From Tannerella sp. (GTDB lineage: Bacteria; Bacteroidota; Bacteroidia; Bacteroidales; Tannerellaceae): DNA of 64,000 nucleotides. The stretch lies in assembly GCA_031285565.1 (NCBI GenBank), contig JAITVY010000020.1, forward strand, positions 62,001 through 126,000, written 5' to 3'. Positions 7,709-34,460 of this stretch are shown here, in pieces. How positions within the stretch are numbered: the stretch's first letter is position 1; every line of letters begins with the position of its first letter. Under the pieces are notes generated by a model. That model was not told the DNA's origin. It saw nothing but the letters and a program-made list of their open reading frames with translations, and searched no databases. Made by a program: the position numbers and the translations under genes.

Positions 7709-8221
7709 TCAATGCCATCTGAAATTCGTATCTGCCAGAGGATCAATGTGGCAAAATTCGTAAAAGTGATTATGTTTGTTTGTTATCCACCAATTATAAT
7801 AGGCATCTGAAGCAATACGATGCGACTCTTTTTTGGGTACTAATTGCATCCCTTCTCCTTTTAACTCAAAAATAGGGTTTTGGGATGGAAATCCCATTGT
7901 ATTACTTCCTATGGCACGAACTCTGATAGATTCGATTATCCACAAAGCATATGTTCCGAGTTCGCATTCGCCGCCCCAAAAAGAGGATATCGGATTAACC
8001 GGATATTCGGAAATAAGTTGGGTCTTATCCCTGTATTCAAGTAGTGCAGGTATGTCATGATAGGTGAATTCGGGCAAAGCCATTGCATCGTATTTACCTG
8101 ATTTTAATTGTTTAATGAATGCTTCTACATCCGGACTTCCTGATGTGTCAGATTCGTCTTTTTGACAGCTACTTATACTTACACAAATTACTAATATCAA
8201 TAAAATATTACAGATTCTCAT
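7709..8221 (-). CDS. Small lipoprotein, probably DUF4943 family
   Basis: A 170-residue protein with a lipoprotein signal ending in the lipobox SISSC (Cys19), so it should be anchored in the envelope. The mature part has the pattern LKSGKYDAMALPEFTYHDIP, followed by an ESIRVRAIG segment. This resembles a Bacteroidetes lipoprotein family I recall as DUF4943, whose function is unknown. It converges with the glutamine synthetase gene, with only 17 nt between stops, and is separated from the upstream minus-strand gene by 177 nt. No catalytic motif is recognised. Confidence 0.7.
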   Translation of the reverse strand: MRICNILLILVICVSISSCQKDESDTSGSPDVEAFIKQLKSGKYDAMALPEFTYHDIPALLEYRDKTQLISEYPVNPISSFWGGECELGTYALWIIESIRVRAIGSNTMGFPSQNPIFELKGEGMQLVPKKESHRIASDAYYNWWITNKHNHFYEFCHIDPLADTNFRWH

Positions 8222-8350
8222 ATCATTAAATTTTTAGGGTAAAACAAAGGTGTTTATTTATAAGATGGCAATAAACAGAAAAATGCTGCACGATAGCATT
8301 AAAATCTATTCTGATCTCTGCAACTATTTCATATTAGTTTATGAAAGACA

Positions 8351-10798: not shown

Positions 10799-11347
10799 TG
10801 ATTTATAAAATTAAAATATTGATAAAGTTTTAATTTATGTAGAAATTTCTTTATTACTATAATATTTAATCGTTCAATATTAAGATTAGATGGGACTTAC
10901 TATGTTTTGTCAGGTTGTTAGATTCATAATCAACAAATATATAAAAATAATTCTACCGATTCATTAAAAACCAAGAAATAGTACAAGCACTTACCATAAA
11001 TTGATAATAAAGTATCAGAAATCAGGAGTAAGATATCGCATAATACTCTATTGATAGTATATAAAAATGCGTCGCATCTGGTAACTCAGTATTAAGAATT
11101 GTAGATTATTTATGAACAATTTCTAACTATATTGAAAGAATGACAAATATGTGAACAATATATATGATGAGTTGTTGTTATCTATAAATGAGGTAGTTCT
11201 GGCAAAATGGAAAATTACATTAATATAGTAGGAGCTTAATTTCTTTGTTAAAATGTAATTTTTTTTTAAATCGACACAATTTTTATGTTGTATGCAGCGT
11301 TTTAGTACAAAGTTACATCTATAGAGATAAAGCATCAAAAAATTATT
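10799..11347. other. Gene-free divergent intergenic region
   Basis: About 550 AT-rich bases separate the Gfo/Idh gene (minus) from the small hydrophobic ORF (plus). A minus-strand -7 element is visible at 10934-10941. No convincing coding frame, RNA gene or repeat was found. No TAnnTTTG was seen for the plus-strand genes. Confidence 0.6.
10934..10941 (-). promoter_or_regulatory. -7 element for the Tat-exported sugar enzyme pair
   Basis: The minus strand reads TATATTTG here (TAnnTTTG). No clear TTTG is present at -33. The leader to the Gfo/Idh start would be about 130 nt. Confidence 0.35.
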
Positions 11348-11560
11348 ATGAAACAATTGTTATTATCTTTTTTCGCTGTAATATTATGCTATTCTTTGTT
11401 TTTTGACAGAAAAGAACGTCATATGCATGTAGACGAGGTAAACTATACGATTCAGTCGGAAGCACACGATTCGTTTCTTCGCCAGGTGCCGGATTCTTTT
11501 TTTTATGCAAAAAATTTAGTTGATTTCTATTATACAGGCTATATACTAAGCGAAGAATGA
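11348..11560 (+). CDS. Small hydrophobic-N-terminus protein, unknown
   Basis: A 70-residue ORF with a hydrophobic N-terminal segment (residues 3-18) followed by a polar, mixed-charge tail ending in ILSEE. Its stop overlaps the start of the following lipoprotein gene (ATGA), which supports translation and coupling. It does not show the NVEALA motif often found in short peptides beside beta-propeller lipoproteins in this order, although the genomic position is similar. It could be a signal-anchored or secreted peptide. No function can be assigned. Confidence 0.55.
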   Translation: MKQLLLSFFAVILCYSLFFDRKERHMHVDEVNYTIQSEAHDSFLRQVPDSFFYAKNLVDFYYTGYILSEE

Positions 11561-12603
11561 AAATCCCGTATGTTCCTTTATTATTACTTTTTCTTGGTGT
11601 ATTTTCATGCACCTACCATGAAAAAAATATTTATATTAATGATAAAGCAATTACTAAAAATACCCTTTCAGATATTTCAAAAAAAATCATTGCAGTACCT
11701 TTAGAAACGACTCCGGCATGTCAGATAAAAGAAGTAAAGCAGGTACAACAAACCGGATCAGATATATTTTTACTAAATGAAAATGAAATTTACCACTTTA
11801 ATCATTCCGGTAATTATCTGAATAAAATATCCCTTGATAACGATGCTATTATATATAGCTATACAATTAATCCTGAAAACCGGCAGTTGGCAGTATTAGA
11901 TAGTATGCAGCAACTTCACTACTTTTCTTATAGCGGTCATAAGCAAGAATTAAAAGATTTAAGTAGTTCTTTACTTTGTAAAACATTATATAAAGTCGCA
12001 TACCATAATAGCAGTTTTTGGGCTATAGGTGAGAATATTTCAGCAAGTAATTGTTTTGAAAAATGGCTTTATAAATTTGATGCTGACTTTAATTTACAGG
12101 AAAGGATTATGCTTTCAAATGTCGAAATGGGGCGTTTTTGTTTAAATAATTGCTTTACTCCTGAATTATCTGTTGCGGATAATATGTTGTATGTATATTC
12201 ACCTTTCTCATTCAAAGAAACCATCTTGCAGGATACATTATATTTAGCTTCAAGTAACCAACTTTCGCAAAATCTGATTAACAATACAATCGATAAAAGC
12301 CAGTCTGTGTACACCTTACCTTTTCGAATGAACCAACGCTACATGATTGCTTCTTATCAGACCAATAGTAGGGAAGAAGAAAATTACTTGTTTTGTTACG
12401 ACCGTAAAGAACAAAAAGCATTTCCATTTCATGGCTTTAACGACGATTTCTATCAAACAGGCCTGGTGACAGATCTGCAATCTGCAGATATATATAATAA
12501 TCAATTTTATTTTTATAAATTCGGACAGGATGTTCTCAGATCATTTCCGGAAAGAACTGTTACTGATAATCCGGTATTGTTTTTTATTACGCTAAAAAGC
12601 TGA
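11557..12603 (+). CDS. Six-bladed beta-propeller lipoprotein
   Basis: A 348-residue protein with a lipoprotein signal (lipobox GVFSC, Cys18). The mature N-terminus has the phrase KKIIAVPLETTPACQIKEV, characteristic of the Bacteroidetes six-bladed beta-propeller lipoproteins (BF3164-like), which read 'ipLETtdeclI' at this place. Repeated hydrophobic-polar strands compatible with blades run through residues 55-340. It should sit in the outer envelope; family members have no established activity. It starts within the stop codon of the 70-residue ORF and ends 2 nt before the pentapeptide gene, so the three are likely co-transcribed. Confidence 0.7.
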   Translation: MKIPYVPLLLLFLGVFSCTYHEKNIYINDKAITKNTLSDISKKIIAVPLETTPACQIKEVKQVQQTGSDIFLLNENEIYHFNHSGNYLNKISLDNDAIIYSYTINPENRQLAVLDSMQQLHYFSYSGHKQELKDLSSSLLCKTLYKVAYHNSSFWAIGENISASNCFEKWLYKFDADFNLQERIMLSNVEMGRFCLNNCFTPELSVADNMLYVYSPFSFKETILQDTLYLASSNQLSQNLINNTIDKSQSVYTLPFRMNQRYMIASYQTNSREEENYLFCYDRKEQKAFPFHGFNDDFYQTGLVTDLQSADIYNNQFYFYKFGQDVLRSFPERTVTDNPVLFFITLKS

Positions 12604-15464: not shown

Positions 15465-15899
15465 TTATTCAATTCTACGTTCGTAAGTAGTTCTTTGTAA
15501 ATGATATATATCTTCCTTTTCGTAAATTCCCTCTATTTCCAATTCTGATTCGGTCAGTTTCAAAACATTCATTTGGGTTCCATCCGAAAGGGTTATTGTT
15601 TGCTTTTCAGCATCATATGAATAAGTTCTTTTAACGGCTCCATTTGTATTCATTGTAGGCCCCCACATACCATAATATACTCCATCGAAGCTCAGCGATA
15701 CAAATCCTGGATATTCATTATAATCAGTCCATTCTTCACCTTCAGACTTATGATATGAATAAATAAGTCGGCTATCCCAGATTCCAACTAATAAGCTCGT
15801 ATCTACTTCTGTTTCTGTATCATCTTTGTTACATGATAAAAAGGATGACGTTATAACGCTTAAAATAAGTATCTTAAAAAAAGTTATGCTATGTTTCAT
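15465..15899 (-). CDS. Lipocalin-like lipoprotein, copy 1
   Basis: The start chosen here (MKHS) gives 144 residues with a lipobox SFLSC at Cys23. A longer frame opens at 15944, but that Met lies inside the predicted promoter, so it is rejected. The mature protein begins LLVGIWDSR and has the beta-rich pattern of Bacteroidetes lipocalin-like lipoproteins (calycin fold). It is paralogous to the gene at 16011, including the DTSLLVG.WD, MNT, YDAE and LKLTE segments. It is preceded by an ECF-type promoter (15931-15956) that matches the one upstream of the sigma gene at 25064. Ligand unknown; a cell-envelope stress role is an inference from the promoter. Confidence 0.72.
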   Translation of the reverse strand: MKHSITFFKILILSVITSSFLSCNKDDTETEVDTSLLVGIWDSRLIYSYHKSEGEEWTDYNEYPGFVSLSFDGVYYGMWGPTMNTNGAVKRTYSYDAEKQTITLSDGTQMNVLKLTESELEIEGIYEKEDIYHLQRTTYERRIE

Positions 15900-15930: not shown

Positions 15931-15956
15931 GATGCAAGTATCAACCAAAAGGTTGC
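15931..15956 (-). promoter_or_regulatory. ECF-type promoter of lipocalin-like copy 1
   Basis: On the minus strand GCAACCT (15950-15956) is followed after exactly 15 nt by CATC (15931-15934) and TTTATA. The same elements and spacing occur at 16471-16496 and, on the plus strand, at 25014-25039 before an ECF sigma gene. The AAC core at -35 is typical of ECF-sigma promoters. The predicted RNA start is about 20-25 nt upstream of the MKHS start codon. Confidence 0.6.
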
Positions 15957-16470: not shown

Positions 16471-16496
16471 GATGCAGACACCAATCAAAAGGTTGC
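16471..16496 (-). promoter_or_regulatory. ECF-type promoter of lipocalin-like copy 2
   Basis: On the minus strand GCAACCT (16490-16496), a 15-nt spacer and CATC (16471-16474) are followed by TTTATATATAG. This is the same architecture as at 15931-15956 and 25014-25039. Confidence 0.6.
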
Positions 16497-24945: not shown

Positions 24946-25013
24946 CCTCTGGCAAAAGAAAATACAAACAGAATATAATTTCAGAAGAATTTCTGTATTT
25001 TTACAATACAGAT

Positions 25014-25039
25014 GCAACCTTTCATTTTTCTCTTGCATC
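25014..25039 (+). promoter_or_regulatory. ECF-type promoter of the sigma factor gene
   Basis: GCAACCT (25014-25020), 15 nt and CATC (25036-25039) followed by ATATAAA match the promoters of the two lipocalin-like genes in sequence and spacing. The predicted RNA start is near 25047, giving a leader of about 17 nt. This implies autoregulation by the encoded sigma factor. Confidence 0.6.
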
Positions 25040-25063
25040 ATATAAAAGAGAGCGTAACATTCT

Positions 25064-25609
25064 ATGAGGGAACAAGAGCTAATCACGGCATGTGTGCAGG
25101 GTGAGTCATGGGCTCGTAAAGAGATTTACGAAACATACGCTCCTACCATGATGAGTCTTTGCATACGTTATGTTGGTAATAAAGAAACAGCGCGTGATTT
25201 ATTACAGGATGGCTTTATAAAAGTGTTCACTCATATCCATGCGTATTCTTACAAAGGTGCATTTGGCGGTTGGATACACAGGATATTTGTTACAACAGCT
25301 CTCGAATATCTTCGAAAAACAGACGCATTGAAGTCAGCGACTGATATCACGGAGTATAGTCAACAACTCAAAGATGTTGAAGTCTCCGTTTTAGATCAAT
25401 TGTCGGCTGATGAGTTAATGAATTGTGTCAAAGCTCTCCCTCCAGGCTACCGGACTGTCTTTAATCTATATGCGATAGAAGGCTATTCGCATCAGGAAAT
25501 AGCAGACATGTTGGGTATTAGTGTAACAACATCAAAAACACAATTTTTACGAGCCAGAAACGCCCTGAAAAAAAGTGTTGAATTATTAACCAAAAATGGA
25601 CATGTCTGA
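25064..25609 (+). CDS. ECF-family RNA polymerase sigma factor
   Basis: The 181-residue protein has sigma region 2 (about 22-80, including RDLLQDGFIKVFTH and WIHRIFVTTALEYLRK) and sigma region 4 (about 115-175, with the helix-turn-helix SHQEIADMLGISVTTSKTQF). There is no region 3 or 1.1, as expected for ECF sigma factors. Its last 14 nt overlap the downstream gene, which is the usual arrangement with an anti-sigma factor. The promoter upstream matches two other promoters in this window, so the gene is probably autoregulated and controls the lipocalin-like lipoproteins. Confidence 0.92.
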   Translation: MREQELITACVQGESWARKEIYETYAPTMMSLCIRYVGNKETARDLLQDGFIKVFTHIHAYSYKGAFGGWIHRIFVTTALEYLRKTDALKSATDITEYSQQLKDVEVSVLDQLSADELMNCVKALPPGYRTVFNLYAIEGYSHQEIADMLGISVTTSKTQFLRARNALKKSVELLTKNGHV

Positions 25610-26885
25610 TAATAAAAAAACAAATAAGTCAGCTGATCCTTTCAGCGAATATATCCGAAAACGATTAAAAACGCATTCCATTCCTCCGGATGAAAATTGC
25701 TGGAATGAGATTGAAGCCCGTTTACAAATAAAAAGGAAACGTTTTCCGGTTCGGGCTGCAATAGCTATTGCAGCATCTGTTCTTAGTGCAGTTTTACTAT
25801 TATATCATATAATCATCAATAATGAGCAAGAAACACAATATGCTTTTGTAGAAAGTAATGACATTTCAATCCAAAATCCTATACCTGAAGATACACATAC
25901 TATAATTGCAAATAGAGCAGGAGAGAAGACAGACAAGATCGACAAGCGAACGGAACATAAGGCAAATATCGGTTTTCCACAAAACCGGATAGATAACAGC
26001 AATGCATCTGTTGTCACTGACGAACATAAAGAAGATGCGGTTGAACAAGAAGAGCCAACAATATGTACGACGGAGGAAAAAAGTACGGAAAATAGTGAAG
26101 GTGATAAAACAAAAAGTGCTGATTTTTATGAAAATAAAAAACAAGATGAATGTCAAATGTCTGAAAATCAGTATGCCTATAATTTGCCATCAGATAAATT
26201 AAAAAGAAGAAAAAGCTGGCAAATAAATGCAGGGTTTGGTACCGGAGCAGGTGCTACAAACTCTTTATTAAACTCTCCCGGCAGACAACCCCCAGGAAAT
26301 GACTTTGCTTCAGGAAATAATGGCCTGCAATTTGGGAATAGTGATAATAGCTTATCAAATGGAACATCAAGTAGTTGTATTACAAACATAGATTATGCAA
26401 TTCCTATATCTGTTGGTCTCACAGTTCGTAAAAAACTAAATAAAACGATTGGAATAGAAACCGGACTTATATATACGTATTTATCAACAGATTATGATGT
26501 TACAGATAATCAGTCCCACAAAGCAACATTAAACTTACATTATTTGGGGATACCGGCTAATCTTATTGTTAACCTCTGGGATAAACGACAATGGAATCTT
26601 TATTTATCTGGTGGTGGAATGGTTGAAAAAGGATTACAAGCTGTATACAAGCAAAAAAGTAAAGTTAATTATCATTTTTTGCAGGATAAAAATAAAAGTA
26701 ATATTTCAGGACTGCAATGGGCATTGAATGGAGGTCTCGGTATTTCTTACAATCTTTATAAGGATATGAATTTATATGTAGAACCTACCATATCATATTA
26801 TTTTGATTGCAATCAACCGTTAAGTAAACGTACTGAAGATCCTTTGAACTTCAGTATCCGTGCAGGTATCCGATATGATTTTTAA
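25596..26885 (+). CDS. Putative anti-sigma protein with C-terminal outer-membrane barrel
   Basis: A 429-residue protein, translationally coupled to the ECF sigma (14-nt overlap). Residues 1-50 are charged and include PPDENCWNEIEARL, resembling the cytoplasmic part of Bacteroidetes anti-sigma-like proteins. One transmembrane helix lies at about 51-73. Residues 74-207 are a low-complexity, Glu/Lys/Asn/Asp-rich linker. From 208 to 429, glycine-rich alternating strands (QINAGFGTGAGAT onward) end in FSIRAGIRYDF, a typical outer-membrane barrel C-terminus. A single chain could therefore run from cytoplasm to outer membrane. Sigma binding is inferred from context only. An alternative start is Met3 at 25602. 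Confidence 0.72.
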   Translation: MDMSDNKKTNKSADPFSEYIRKRLKTHSIPPDENCWNEIEARLQIKRKRFPVRAAIAIAASVLSAVLLLYHIIINNEQETQYAFVESNDISIQNPIPEDTHTIIANRAGEKTDKIDKRTEHKANIGFPQNRIDNSNASVVTDEHKEDAVEQEEPTICTTEEKSTENSEGDKTKSADFYENKKQDECQMSENQYAYNLPSDKLKRRKSWQINAGFGTGAGATNSLLNSPGRQPPGNDFASGNNGLQFGNSDNSLSNGTSSSCITNIDYAIPISVGLTVRKKLNKTIGIETGLIYTYLSTDYDVTDNQSHKATLNLHYLGIPANLIVNLWDKRQWNLYLSGGGMVEKGLQAVYKQKSKVNYHFLQDKNKSNISGLQWALNGGLGISYNLYKDMNLYVEPTISYYFDCNQPLSKRTEDPLNFSIRAGIRYDF

Positions 26886-32755: not shown

Positions 32756-33712
32756 CTATTTGGATTTTAATTTCTCAAAAATAGCCTCTGAAACTTTAAA
32801 AGCTGTTCCATGTCGAACTCCCTTCGGAAACGAAATAATATCCGATACGTCTTCCCATATAATCATATCATTTGAGCGAACCGCGCCATATGTATGATCA
32901 CGATATTTATCAAAATAAACATATACATACTCTCCAACCTGTAAAGGTGCAGGTCCTTCAGCCCAATAATTACCTGTAATCGGATCAGATGTAATAACCG
33001 GAAAATCATATGGCTTATCGTTTGAAATAAAACGAATGTTTTTCTCCGGAGGATCAGAATTCTCATTCTTCACAAATAAATAATATTTTCCTTCCTTTTC
33101 TAAAATAGAACCGTCGATTACACTGAAACCCGGATCAAAGAAAATATTTGTTTCGCTAAACGTCTTAAAATCTTTAGTTGTTACATAAAACTGACGGTGA
33201 TTCAAACCTTTTTCACTTTCAGATGTAGGAACTTCAGGAAACATTCCGGGAATAGTAGATGCCCAAAAAATATAAAAGACTTGCTCAGTTCGGTCATAAA
33301 ATAATTCGGGAGCCCATGAATTTTTGACTCCTTTAAATGATTCCATTACCGGAATATTTTTTTGTTCAGACCAATGAATCAAGTCGGGCGACGATGCATA
33401 ACCTATACCTTGATCCCACCAGCCGGTAGTCCAAACCATATGAAAAATTCCTTTTTCGTCTTGAACAATACTCGGATCCCGCATTAACTTATCCTTTCCG
33501 ATCTGAGGCTTTAAATAAGAAGAATCGTTATTTAAAGAAAACCAACGGTGCCCATCTAAACTATAAGCAAGATGCAATCCGTCTTCACCATTTCCGGTAA
33601 AATAAGAAAACATATATATATCATTTTCAGATGTTTGTGCGTGTATACAATTGTATAGCGATGTATACAGAAATGTGAATATACACATGTAAATTAAATG
33701 TTTGTTTATCAT
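32756..33712 (-). CDS. Secreted glycoside hydrolase family 43-like enzyme
   Basis: With the start at MINKHL (33712) the protein is 318 residues and has a signal peptide ending at HAQ (about 26). A longer frame to 33736 is less likely. A five-bladed propeller of GH43 type is indicated by MRDPSI (catalytic base Asp), SWAPELFYD, VIDGSILEKEG (pKa-modulating Asp) and the YWAEGPAPL segment (candidate acid Glu). GH43 enzymes remove arabinose, xylose or galactose residues from plant polysaccharides. No SusC/SusD pair or regulator lies beside it, so it is not in a recognisable polysaccharide locus. Confidence 0.82.
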   Translation of the reverse strand: MINKHLIYMCIFTFLYTSLYNCIHAQTSENDIYMFSYFTGNGEDGLHLAYSLDGHRWFSLNNDSSYLKPQIGKDKLMRDPSIVQDEKGIFHMVWTTGWWDQGIGYASSPDLIHWSEQKNIPVMESFKGVKNSWAPELFYDRTEQVFYIFWASTIPGMFPEVPTSESEKGLNHRQFYVTTKDFKTFSETNIFFDPGFSVIDGSILEKEGKYYLFVKNENSDPPEKNIRFISNDKPYDFPVITSDPITGNYWAEGPAPLQVGEYVYVYFDKYRDHTYGAVRSNDMIIWEDVSDIISFPKGVRHGTAFKVSEAIFEKLKSK

Positions 33713-34460
33713 GTTAAATTCATATATTAATAACATTTGTAATTATAAAGCAGTATAGTCTTATAGTTATTCCTCTTAAATAAAAGATAACATCAGATAA
33801 TACCTTTTGATGAAATCATACAGTACAATTATACAAAATAAAAACTGTTTCTTAAAACTCTTTCTTATTTTATTAAAATATCCTTCCTTTTTAAAAAGGA
33901 GAACCTCAGGATTTATATATTTCTACCTAACTTTATCAAAATTGAAAGATTTTTTTGATATAACCGTAGCTACCAAATTAAATTTATAAAAACAGTCCTT
34001 AACTGCATAAGTTTATATATCCTTTATTTGTTTACCTTATTATAAGCAGAAAGGCTACAAGCCAGTCTGCATGTGTATACCATGATTAACCAGACAATAT
34101 TCTGCTATTACTTATTATCAAAGGAAATTAATTATGTATATGAACGAATCCAGGTAACTCTAAGCGTCATATAGATGTGCTTTAAAGCTTATATCCATAT
34201 AACTGATCTGCTATGCCTTTTATCTTTTTATTCAATTATAGAGTGATAAATAGCTATCTAAGCATATAAGTTATGATGCTGGATAGAACTCTGCATTACT
34301 ATGATAAATTCCTGAGTATGCATCATGAGAATTCAATATTTGAACATAGCAAAGATATTGTTCGGAAATATGCGATTTATTCGATATCAAGAAAAATATA
34401 TGGTTTATTTATAAAGGCAATGTGACAAAATGACGCATTCGAAATCTTCATATAATCAGG

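What the first reader, a model, noticed from the sequence alone, without database searches (positions are those of the whole stretch)
25014..25039. A three-member ECF regulon visible from promoter sequence
GCAACCT-N15-CATC occurs with identical spacing before the ECF sigma gene (25014-25039, plus) and before both lipocalin-like lipoprotein genes (15931-15956 and 16471-16496, minus), about 9 kb away. The AAC core of the -35 fits ECF promoters, and TAnnTTTG is absent at these sites. This predicts that the sigma activates its own operon and the two lipoproteins.
Basis: partly seen in the sequence, partly recalled or inferred. Interest (0 to 1): 0.72.

Follow-up and report, generated by a model that had tools for sequence, protein, structure and literature searches.

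The report
Sigma factor promoter for lipoprotein genes
Three matching stretches of DNA look like start sites read by one regulatory protein that switches on its own gene and genes for surface lipoproteins, and the same start-site signal marks many more lipoprotein genes in this genome and its relatives, so the predicted control circuit appears real but larger than first thought and belongs to an already known kind.

Summary
It looks like a conserved ECF promoter. TGCARC-N16/17-MRTC precedes 28 of 29 same-order homologues of the sigma (0.04 expected) and 48 of 75 named homologues (0.1 expected), and lies in the opposite orientation in only 1 of 104 upstream regions. A profile trained on 21 sigma-gene promoters only ranks one lipoprotein site first, the other fifth and the sigma's own seventh in this genome. 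So the prediction is supported, but "three members" is an undercount: of 23 own-genome sites with E<=1, 13 have a predicted lipoprotein as first gene, 1 as second gene, 2 are sigma genes, 7 are unclear. Targets include a serpin and a NigD1/NigD2-family lipoprotein. The next gene encodes a helix-TM-tether-barrel protein, the Dma/Reo anti-sigma plan. A paralogous pair 73 kb away has a similar promoter, so which sigma reads which site is unsettled. No expression data. New member of the known EcfO-Reo/Das-Dma kind.

The parts
25014..25039 (+). ECF-type promoter of the sigma operon (TGCAACCTTT ... TTGCATCATATA)
   Evidence: exact motif; R1 hit 25011-25046 (this site was in the training set); element kept in four same-genus orthologues, one as GCAACTT
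25064..25609 (+). ECF sigma factor, 181 aa (Das/EcfO-like, putative ECF21)
   Evidence: Pfam Sigma70_r2 5.2e-14, Sigma70_r4_2 7.8e-17
25596..26885 (+). Dma/Reo-like anti-sigma: N-terminal helices, TM helix 50-76, low-confidence tether, C-terminal beta-barrel; overlaps the sigma gene by 14 nt
   Evidence: OMP_b-brl_2 4e-10; AlphaFold model, pLDDT block means 81-96 from residue 261 on; hydrophobic segment from residue 56
15931..15956 (-). ECF promoter of lipoprotein gene A
   Evidence: exact motif; best hit in this genome for a model trained only on sigma promoters, E 8.8e-5
15465..15899 (-). lipoprotein A, 144 aa, lipobox ...SFLSC, possibly lipocalin-like
   Evidence: no Pfam match
16471..16496 (-). 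ECF promoter of lipoprotein gene B
   Evidence: exact motif; R1 E 8.2e-4, fifth in genome
16011..16439 (-). lipoprotein B, 142 aa, paralogue of A (47% identity)
   Evidence: all-beta low-confidence model
   Evidence: R1 E 0.0016, sixth in genome; sites before similar small genes in three same-genus genomes (L260, L267, L272)
11348..11560 (+). 70-aa ORF, putative small secreted peptide, first gene after the 11291 promoter; overlaps the next gene (ATGA)
   Evidence: translation; likeness to the L260/L267/L272 products judged by eye
11557..12603 (+). 6-bladed beta-propeller lipoprotein (DUF5128), second gene after the 11291 promoter
   Evidence: Pfam 1.9e-15; lipobox
8258..8292 (-). weaker ECF promoter-like site (TGCAGCATTTTTCTGTTTATTGCCATC)
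   Evidence: R1 E 0.35 genome-wide, 0.046 in the smaller search
7709..8221 (-). DUF4943 lipoprotein, 170 aa
   Evidence: Pfam 2.7e-38; lipobox

Best explanation
The motif is the -35/-10 promoter read by an autoregulated ECF sigma factor of the Bacteroidota EcfO/Das (putative ECF21) kind. The sigma is encoded just before, and overlapping, a Dma/Reo-like anti-sigma that spans from the cytoplasm to an outer-membrane beta-barrel. When the envelope sensor lets go, the sigma binds TGCAAC(C/T)TT-N12-TGCATC-like promoters, raises its own operon and turns on surface lipoprotein genes: the two paralogous lipoproteins here and, with its paralogue 73 kb away, about a dozen more, including a serpin and a NigD-family protein. 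Shown here: motif, spacing, orientation, conservation, linkage to lipoprotein genes, architecture of both proteins. Inferred: that transcription starts there, that this sigma and not its paralogue reads the two lipoprotein promoters, that the barrel protein inhibits the sigma, and that the signal is outer-membrane stress.
For: Exact motif; 5 exact matches genome-wide, 3 of them the sites. Four closest orthologues (77-78% identity) keep the element 50-54 nt before the aligned start although spacer and flanks changed. 28 of 29 same-order sigma homologues (the pattern was widened after looking at them) and 48 of 75 named homologues fetched afterwards carry it. Spacing, with CATC: 56 of 104 upstream regions at N17, 8 at N16, at most 1 at any other spacing from 8 to 26. 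Orientation: 76 of 104 sigma upstream regions have it towards the gene, 1 of 104 reversed; of 23 own-genome sites 14 have a lipoprotein start within 260 nt on the CATC side, 2 on the other side. Of 30 own-genome ECF loci looked at, only this sigma and its nearest paralogue carry it. A model trained on sigma promoters alone puts a lipoprotein site first and the other fifth in this genome. Of the 23 own-genome sites with E<=1, 13 have a lipoprotein as first gene against 5 of 61 window genes by the same rule (binomial p 4e-9). Leaders of the two lipoproteins 53/63 identical against 47% at third codon positions. Second-gene architecture; ORF >280 aa with an N-terminal TM segment after the sigma in 29 of 31 named loci. 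NigD lipoproteins are reported targets of Das1-Dma1 and EcfO-Reo (PMC13088901, PMC13114119: passages and, for the first, two sections read).
Against: No 5' ends, expression or binding data. The paralogous sigma has a similar promoter (GCAGCGTTTTTCCGAATTGTTGCATC), and regulons may overlap. The sigma-specific reading of GCARCY over GCARCG is significant only when the sigma genes' own promoters and the window sites are counted (10 against 8 sites, p 7e-4; without them 3 against 5, p 0.19); 4 of the 36 'without' genomes (G061-G064) were never searched for the sigma; and one genome without a detected close orthologue (G002, 86% complete) has a serpin-like gene with a GCAACCTT promoter. Lipoproteins A and B have no clear orthologue in the 40 other same-genus genomes or the 392 other genomes, 14 of which gave weak, mostly partial matches; 0 of those 15 loci has the motif by the strict pattern and 1 by a looser one, so the link cannot be tested on orthologues. 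7 of the 23 own-genome sites have no clear target. R1 E-values are rough (shortened calibration), and 150 of 3,442 first-look candidates of this genome were scored.
Confidence: 0.8

Rival explanations
1. The same promoter class, but the two lipoproteins are read mainly or also by the paralogous ECF/Dma-like pair 73 kb away (G000:C23:160114-160638), so the regulon is shared and does not belong to the window sigma.
For: Paralogue 53% identical, followed by a protein of similar plan, promoter of the same form. Possible crosstalk among Dma loci is reported in B. thetaiotaomicron (PMC13088901 section 7).
Against: The more distant sigma group mostly has G after GCARC, while this sigma's own promoter, three of its four orthologues' and the two lipoproteins have C. 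GCARCY sites are denser in the five genomes with this sigma (0.43 against 0.08 per Mb) while GCARCG sites are not (0.34 against 0.35 per Mb); weak once the sigma promoters and window sites are removed (p 0.19), and 4 of the 36 other genomes were not searched for the sigma.
Confidence: 0.25
2. The element is a palindromic operator (GATGCAA-N15-TTGCATC at the sigma gene) for a dimeric transcription factor rather than a sigma promoter.
For: The two halves are perfect 7-base inverted repeats at the sigma gene and near-perfect in several relatives; some sites match on both strands.
Against: In 66 aligned sites TGCA[AG]C and CATC/CGTC-like ends are kept, but the base that would complete the right half is not (G before CATC in 30 of 66). 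The element is oriented: 76 forward against 1 reversed in 104 sigma upstream regions; lipoprotein starts on the CATC side at 14 of 23 own-genome sites, on the other side at 2. CGTC variants and the N16/17 spacing are as expected of ECF promoters (general knowledge).
Confidence: 0.05
3. Chance or paralogy: the lipoprotein sites match only because one gene was copied with its leader, and the sigma-gene match is a coincidence.
Against: Deep conservation before sigma homologues, rank 1 and 5 of the lipoprotein sites with a model that never saw them, lipoprotein enrichment elsewhere in the genome and in relatives.
Confidence: 0.03

Closest known systems
EcfO-Reo (Bacteroides fragilis, Phocaeicola vulgatus)
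   Same: ECF sigma gene followed by a large anti-sigma with inner-membrane helix and C-terminal outer-membrane beta-barrel; regulon with three NigD lipoproteins (PMC9308784, PMC13114119; passages read). An EcfO recognition motif is in print (Ndamukong 2013, according to PMC7366714, passages read); that paper is not held and I did not see the motif.
   Different: Different genus of Bacteroidales; the predicted lipoprotein set here is largely without Pfam names, with a serpin and rSAM-associated and DUF4943 lipoproteins; signal untested.
Das1-Dma1 and Das2-Dma2 (Bacteroides thetaiotaomicron)
   Same: The Dma domain plan (N-terminal sigma-binding part, TM, disordered tether, C-terminal barrel) matches; Das1-Dma1 controls nigD1; a DUF4943 gene is induced in the dma2 mutant (PMC13088901: outline, passages, sections 3 and 7 read).
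   Different: There the DUF4943 gene sits in the dma2 operon, here 17 kb from the sigma; effect on vesiculation unknown here; the word 'motif' does not occur in that paper's main text.
SM6 ECF promoters of Flavobacterium psychrophilum
   Same: ECF-type -10 with a CGT box, also before a sigma/anti-sigma pair (PMC9723704, passages read).
   Different: Named targets there include type IX secretion components, not a lipoprotein set; the motif's full sequence is in a figure that I could not see.

Membership tests
ECF sigma factors | sigma-70 regions 2 and 4 without regions 1 and 3 | tested here: met
   181 aa with Sigma70_r2 at 21-87 and r4_2 at 116-168; TIGR02937 over cut-off
ECF21 / Das group | restricted to Bacteroidota and encoded beside a Dma-family gene (as described in PMC13088901) | tested here: met
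   29 of 31 closest named homologues have a downstream ORF >280 aa with an N-terminal TM segment; of the 80 best named loci, one title is an 'uncultured bacterium', one a Competibacteraceae bin, the rest Bacteroidota taxa by my knowledge of the names (506 relatives were found, 80 kept)
ECF21 / Das group | match to the ECF21 subgroup model of the ECF classification | not testable with these tools
   that classification's models are not in the libraries; no direct comparison with Das1/Das2/EcfO sequences was made
Dma / Reo anti-sigma | N-terminal helical domain, TM helix, long disordered tether, C-terminal outer-membrane beta-barrel | tested here: met
   model with helices 15-48 and 50-76, pLDDT<50 at 78-203 and 220-259, strands between 208 and 428 (mean pLDDT 64.2, pTM 0.49); OMP_b-brl_2
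Dma / Reo anti-sigma | binds and inhibits the cognate sigma | not testable with these tools
   needs binding or deletion experiments
EcfO/Das regulon | NigD-family lipoprotein among the targets | tested here: inconclusive
   a NigD1/NigD2 lipoprotein (NF051862, E 7.2e-68) has a site 29 nt before its ATG, but the site's genome-wide E is 0.28; a NigD-like gene in G034 has a site with E 0.46
ECF promoter | -35 with AAC and -10 with CGTC/CATC at fixed 16-17 nt spacing before the sigma's own gene | tested here: met
   transcription start not tested
Lipocalin-like lipoproteins | calycin beta-barrel fold | tested here: inconclusive
   no Pfam or NCBIfam match; low-confidence model with weak FABP/lipocalin similarity

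The most novel reading that the evidence does not exclude
Two paralogous sigma/dual-membrane anti-sigma pairs in one genome divide a lipoprotein-dominated surface regulon (serpin, NigD-like, lipocalin-like, rSAM-associated, propeller lipoproteins) by the base after the -35 core: GCARCY for the window sigma, GCARCG for its paralogue. EcfO/Das-type systems across Bacteroidales would then be dedicated switches of the cell's lipoprotein coat, wired by one widely shared promoter code.
Probability: 0.3. Interest if true: 0.7.

Novelty: new member of a known kind. Interest (0 to 1): 0.48.

Why it matters
Dual-membrane anti-sigma systems affect vesicles, toxin tolerance and gut fitness in gut Bacteroidales, yet how their sigmas pick targets is little known. 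A promoter element that can be recognised from sequence, and that here marks lipoprotein genes in several genomes, lets anyone list the candidate targets of such systems in a Bacteroidales genome and test them. It also supplies unstudied lipoproteins, a serpin among them, as candidate effectors.

Tried and rejected
Dyad operator: considered because of the inverted repeat, rejected because the right half is not conserved beyond CATC and the element is oriented. Chance: rejected. The pattern with N10 instead of N11 was my counting error; it missed the window sites and gave 2 weak hits, an accidental spacing control; corrected.

Lipoprotein orthologues as a test of the link: none in 40 other same-genus genomes; weak matches in 14 of 392 other genomes; of those 15 loci 0 have the motif by the strict pattern, 1 (L353) by a looser one. 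Lipobox rules: a first rule flagged 11 of the 13 first genes counted here and the second gene at 11291, missing L226 and L233; a laxer rule called 15 of 61 window genes lipoproteins, too loose; a third rule, chosen after seeing the others, of 61 (four of the five follow a site, the fifth, 32756-33736, is doubtful) and was run by script on the ATG ORFs near all 23 sites: 14 on the CATC side (one being the second gene at 11291), 2 on the other side.

Parts of lists seen: one search examined 63 of the 75 sites with E<=1 in five genomes (all 23 of the own genome, 40 of 52 in the other four; the 10 own-genome sites with E above 1 were not examined). The 40, sorted by eye: 7 sigma genes, 14 lipoproteins, 3 small and 8 other secreted proteins, 8 unclear. 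One search examined 30 of 45 sites in six genomes reached through named loci: 6 sigma genes, 8 lipoproteins, 3 other secreted proteins, 13 unclear, by eye. One search examined 30 of 64 region-4 matches. One search took 79 of 80 named loci (L180 left out, too little upstream); the 75 counted exclude four that repeat loci already seen. The 41 genomes include four (G061-G064) that one search had not searched for the sigma. L295-type sites were not examined for downstream genes, and one search's L277-L279 only as mirror sites.

Literature: the searches showed me no text giving this motif, but the two papers most likely to hold it (Ndamukong 2013; Pardue 2024) are not held, so I make no claim that it is unpublished.

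Full report
What was checked. The pattern GCAACCT-N15-CATC occurs exactly at 15931-15956 (-), 16471-16496 (-) and 25014-25039 (+) and nowhere else in the window; shuffles give 0.01. The whole assembly has five exact matches; the other two lie inside open frames. The two lipoprotein genes are paralogues (47% identity), so I looked for independent evidence.

Conservation before sigma genes. Four same-genus genomes hold orthologues of the sigma at 77-78% identity, and all four carry the element 50-54 nt before the aligned start, three as GCAACCT and one as GCAACTT, while the surrounding DNA has changed. Among 29 homologues with upstream sequence (this sigma and 28 from same-genus and same-order genomes), 28 have TGCARC-N16/17-MRTC within 150 nt, 0.04 expected. 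That pattern was widened after seeing them, so I tested it on named genomes fetched afterwards: 48 of 75, 0.1 expected. All 31 named homologues from L107 to L137 carry it (two of them copies of the orthologues above); all 27 misses are at most 51% identical to the window sigma. With CATC, only spacings N17 (56) and N16 (8) are favoured among 104 upstream regions; every other spacing from 8 to 26 gives at most 1. The element points towards the gene in 76 of 104 regions and the other way in 1. In the own genome 2 of 30 ECF loci examined have it: this sigma and a 53%-identical paralogue 73 kb away.

The link to lipoproteins. A sequence-only profile was built from 21 sigma-gene promoters with no lipoprotein promoter in it. 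In the own genome its best hit is the 15931 lipoprotein site (E 8.8e-5); the 16471 site is fifth (8.2e-4), the paralogue's promoter fourth and the window sigma's seventh, the last two being training members. E-values are rough, and 150 of 3,442 first-look candidates were scored. Among all 23 own-genome sites with E<=1, 13 have a predicted lipoprotein as first gene, one (window 11291) a 70-aa putative secreted peptide followed by a lipoprotein, two are the sigma genes and seven are unclear, one of these before a 305-aa ORF that is no lipoprotein. By the same lipobox rule 5 of 61 window genes are lipoproteins, and a lipoprotein start lies within 260 nt on the CATC side at 14 of 23 sites but on the other side at 2. 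The four convincing lipoproteins of the window (7709, 11557, 15465, 16011) all follow such a site, directly or as second gene, the 7709 site being weak (E 0.35). Own-genome targets include a serpin (7.6e-112), a NigD-like protein (2.3e-32), DUF4943 and a DUF5128 propeller, and an rSAM-associated lipoprotein; of the 13 first genes, nine gave no Pfam family over its cut-off, the two window lipoproteins among them. Serpin lipoproteins with the element 35-50 nt upstream occur in G000, G027, G034 and G002 (two confirmed by Pfam, two by eye). By eye, similar lipoprotein pairs with sites recur between G000 and G034 (L219/L240, L230/L255, L233/L241, L226/L253). In four relatives 40 of 52 sites were examined: 7 sigma genes, 14 lipoproteins, 11 other secreted proteins, 8 unclear (by eye). 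In six genomes reached through named loci 30 of 45 sites were examined: 6 sigma genes, 8 lipoproteins, 3 other secreted proteins, 13 unclear (by eye).

Constraint on the leaders. The 63 nt before the start codons of the two lipoproteins are 53/63 identical, dropping to 16/42 at 58-100 nt; third codon positions are 47% and four-fold-like sites 7 of 24 identical. Identity is high in spacer (21/26 over the element) and leader too, so gene conversion of the block is not excluded.

The anti-sigma. The gene overlapping the sigma's end encodes N-terminal helices, a TM helix (50-76), a low-confidence stretch (78-203, again 220-259) and a C-terminal beta-barrel with block pLDDT 81-96 from residue 261. 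This is the plan given for Dma proteins (PMC13088901) and for the P. vulgatus anti-sigma called Reo (PMC9308784; named Reo in PMC13114119). The paralogous sigma is followed by a 416-aa protein with a TM segment near residue 49 and a similar C-terminus by eye.

Which sigma reads which site. This sigma's own promoter and the two lipoproteins have C after GCAAC, whereas the more distant sigma group mostly has G. GCARCY sites number 10 in the five genomes with this sigma (23.5 Mb) and 8 in 36 others (98.5 Mb), three of the 8 being mirror images of GCARCG sites; GCARCG sites number 8 and 34. The difference is significant (p 7e-4) but rests on the sigma promoters and the window sites; without them it is 3 against 5 (p 0.19), one of the 5 lies before a serpin-like gene (G002), and four of the 36 genomes were not searched for the sigma. 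I treat the code as a hypothesis.

Known background. EcfO-Reo in P. vulgatus drives three NigD lipoproteins and responds to antibacterial toxins and to the gut (PMC13114119, PMC9308784). Das1-Dma1 controls nigD1 and vesiculation in B. thetaiotaomicron, and a DUF4943 gene is induced in the dma2 mutant (PMC13088901). An EcfO motif is in print according to PMC7366714 but I could not read it. The system is therefore a new member of a known kind, with a larger and more lipoprotein-dominated predicted regulon than the finding states. No expression evidence was available.

Noticed in passing
G000:C23:160114-160638 (L059, L236): Second ECF sigma, 53% identical to the window's, followed by its own 416-aa Dma-like gene, with promoter GCAGCGTTTTTCCGAATTGTTGCATC.
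   Followed up: yes
window 11291-12603: Promoter-like site, 70-aa putative secreted peptide and DUF5128 propeller lipoprotein in one overlapping unit; similar small genes with similar sites in G009, G027 and G033.
   Followed up: partly
L218 (G000:C50), L266 (G027), L238 (G034), L284 (G002): Serpin lipoproteins with the element 35-50 nt before their start in four same-genus genomes.
   Followed up: partly
L246, L263, L268, L275, L328, L336: A conserved secreted protein (MKTKKLTS...FVDDVYFSS and the like) with a site about 200 nt upstream in four same-genus genomes and in two genomes titled Parabacteroides; the long leader is unexplained.
   Followed up: no
upstream of sigma orthologues L008-L012: The leader GAGAGCGTAACA between promoter and start codon is invariant in the five orthologues, more than a plain leader needs.
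   Followed up: no
G000: 64 Sigma70_r4_2 matches in one genome, 61 over the family cut-off.
   Followed up: no
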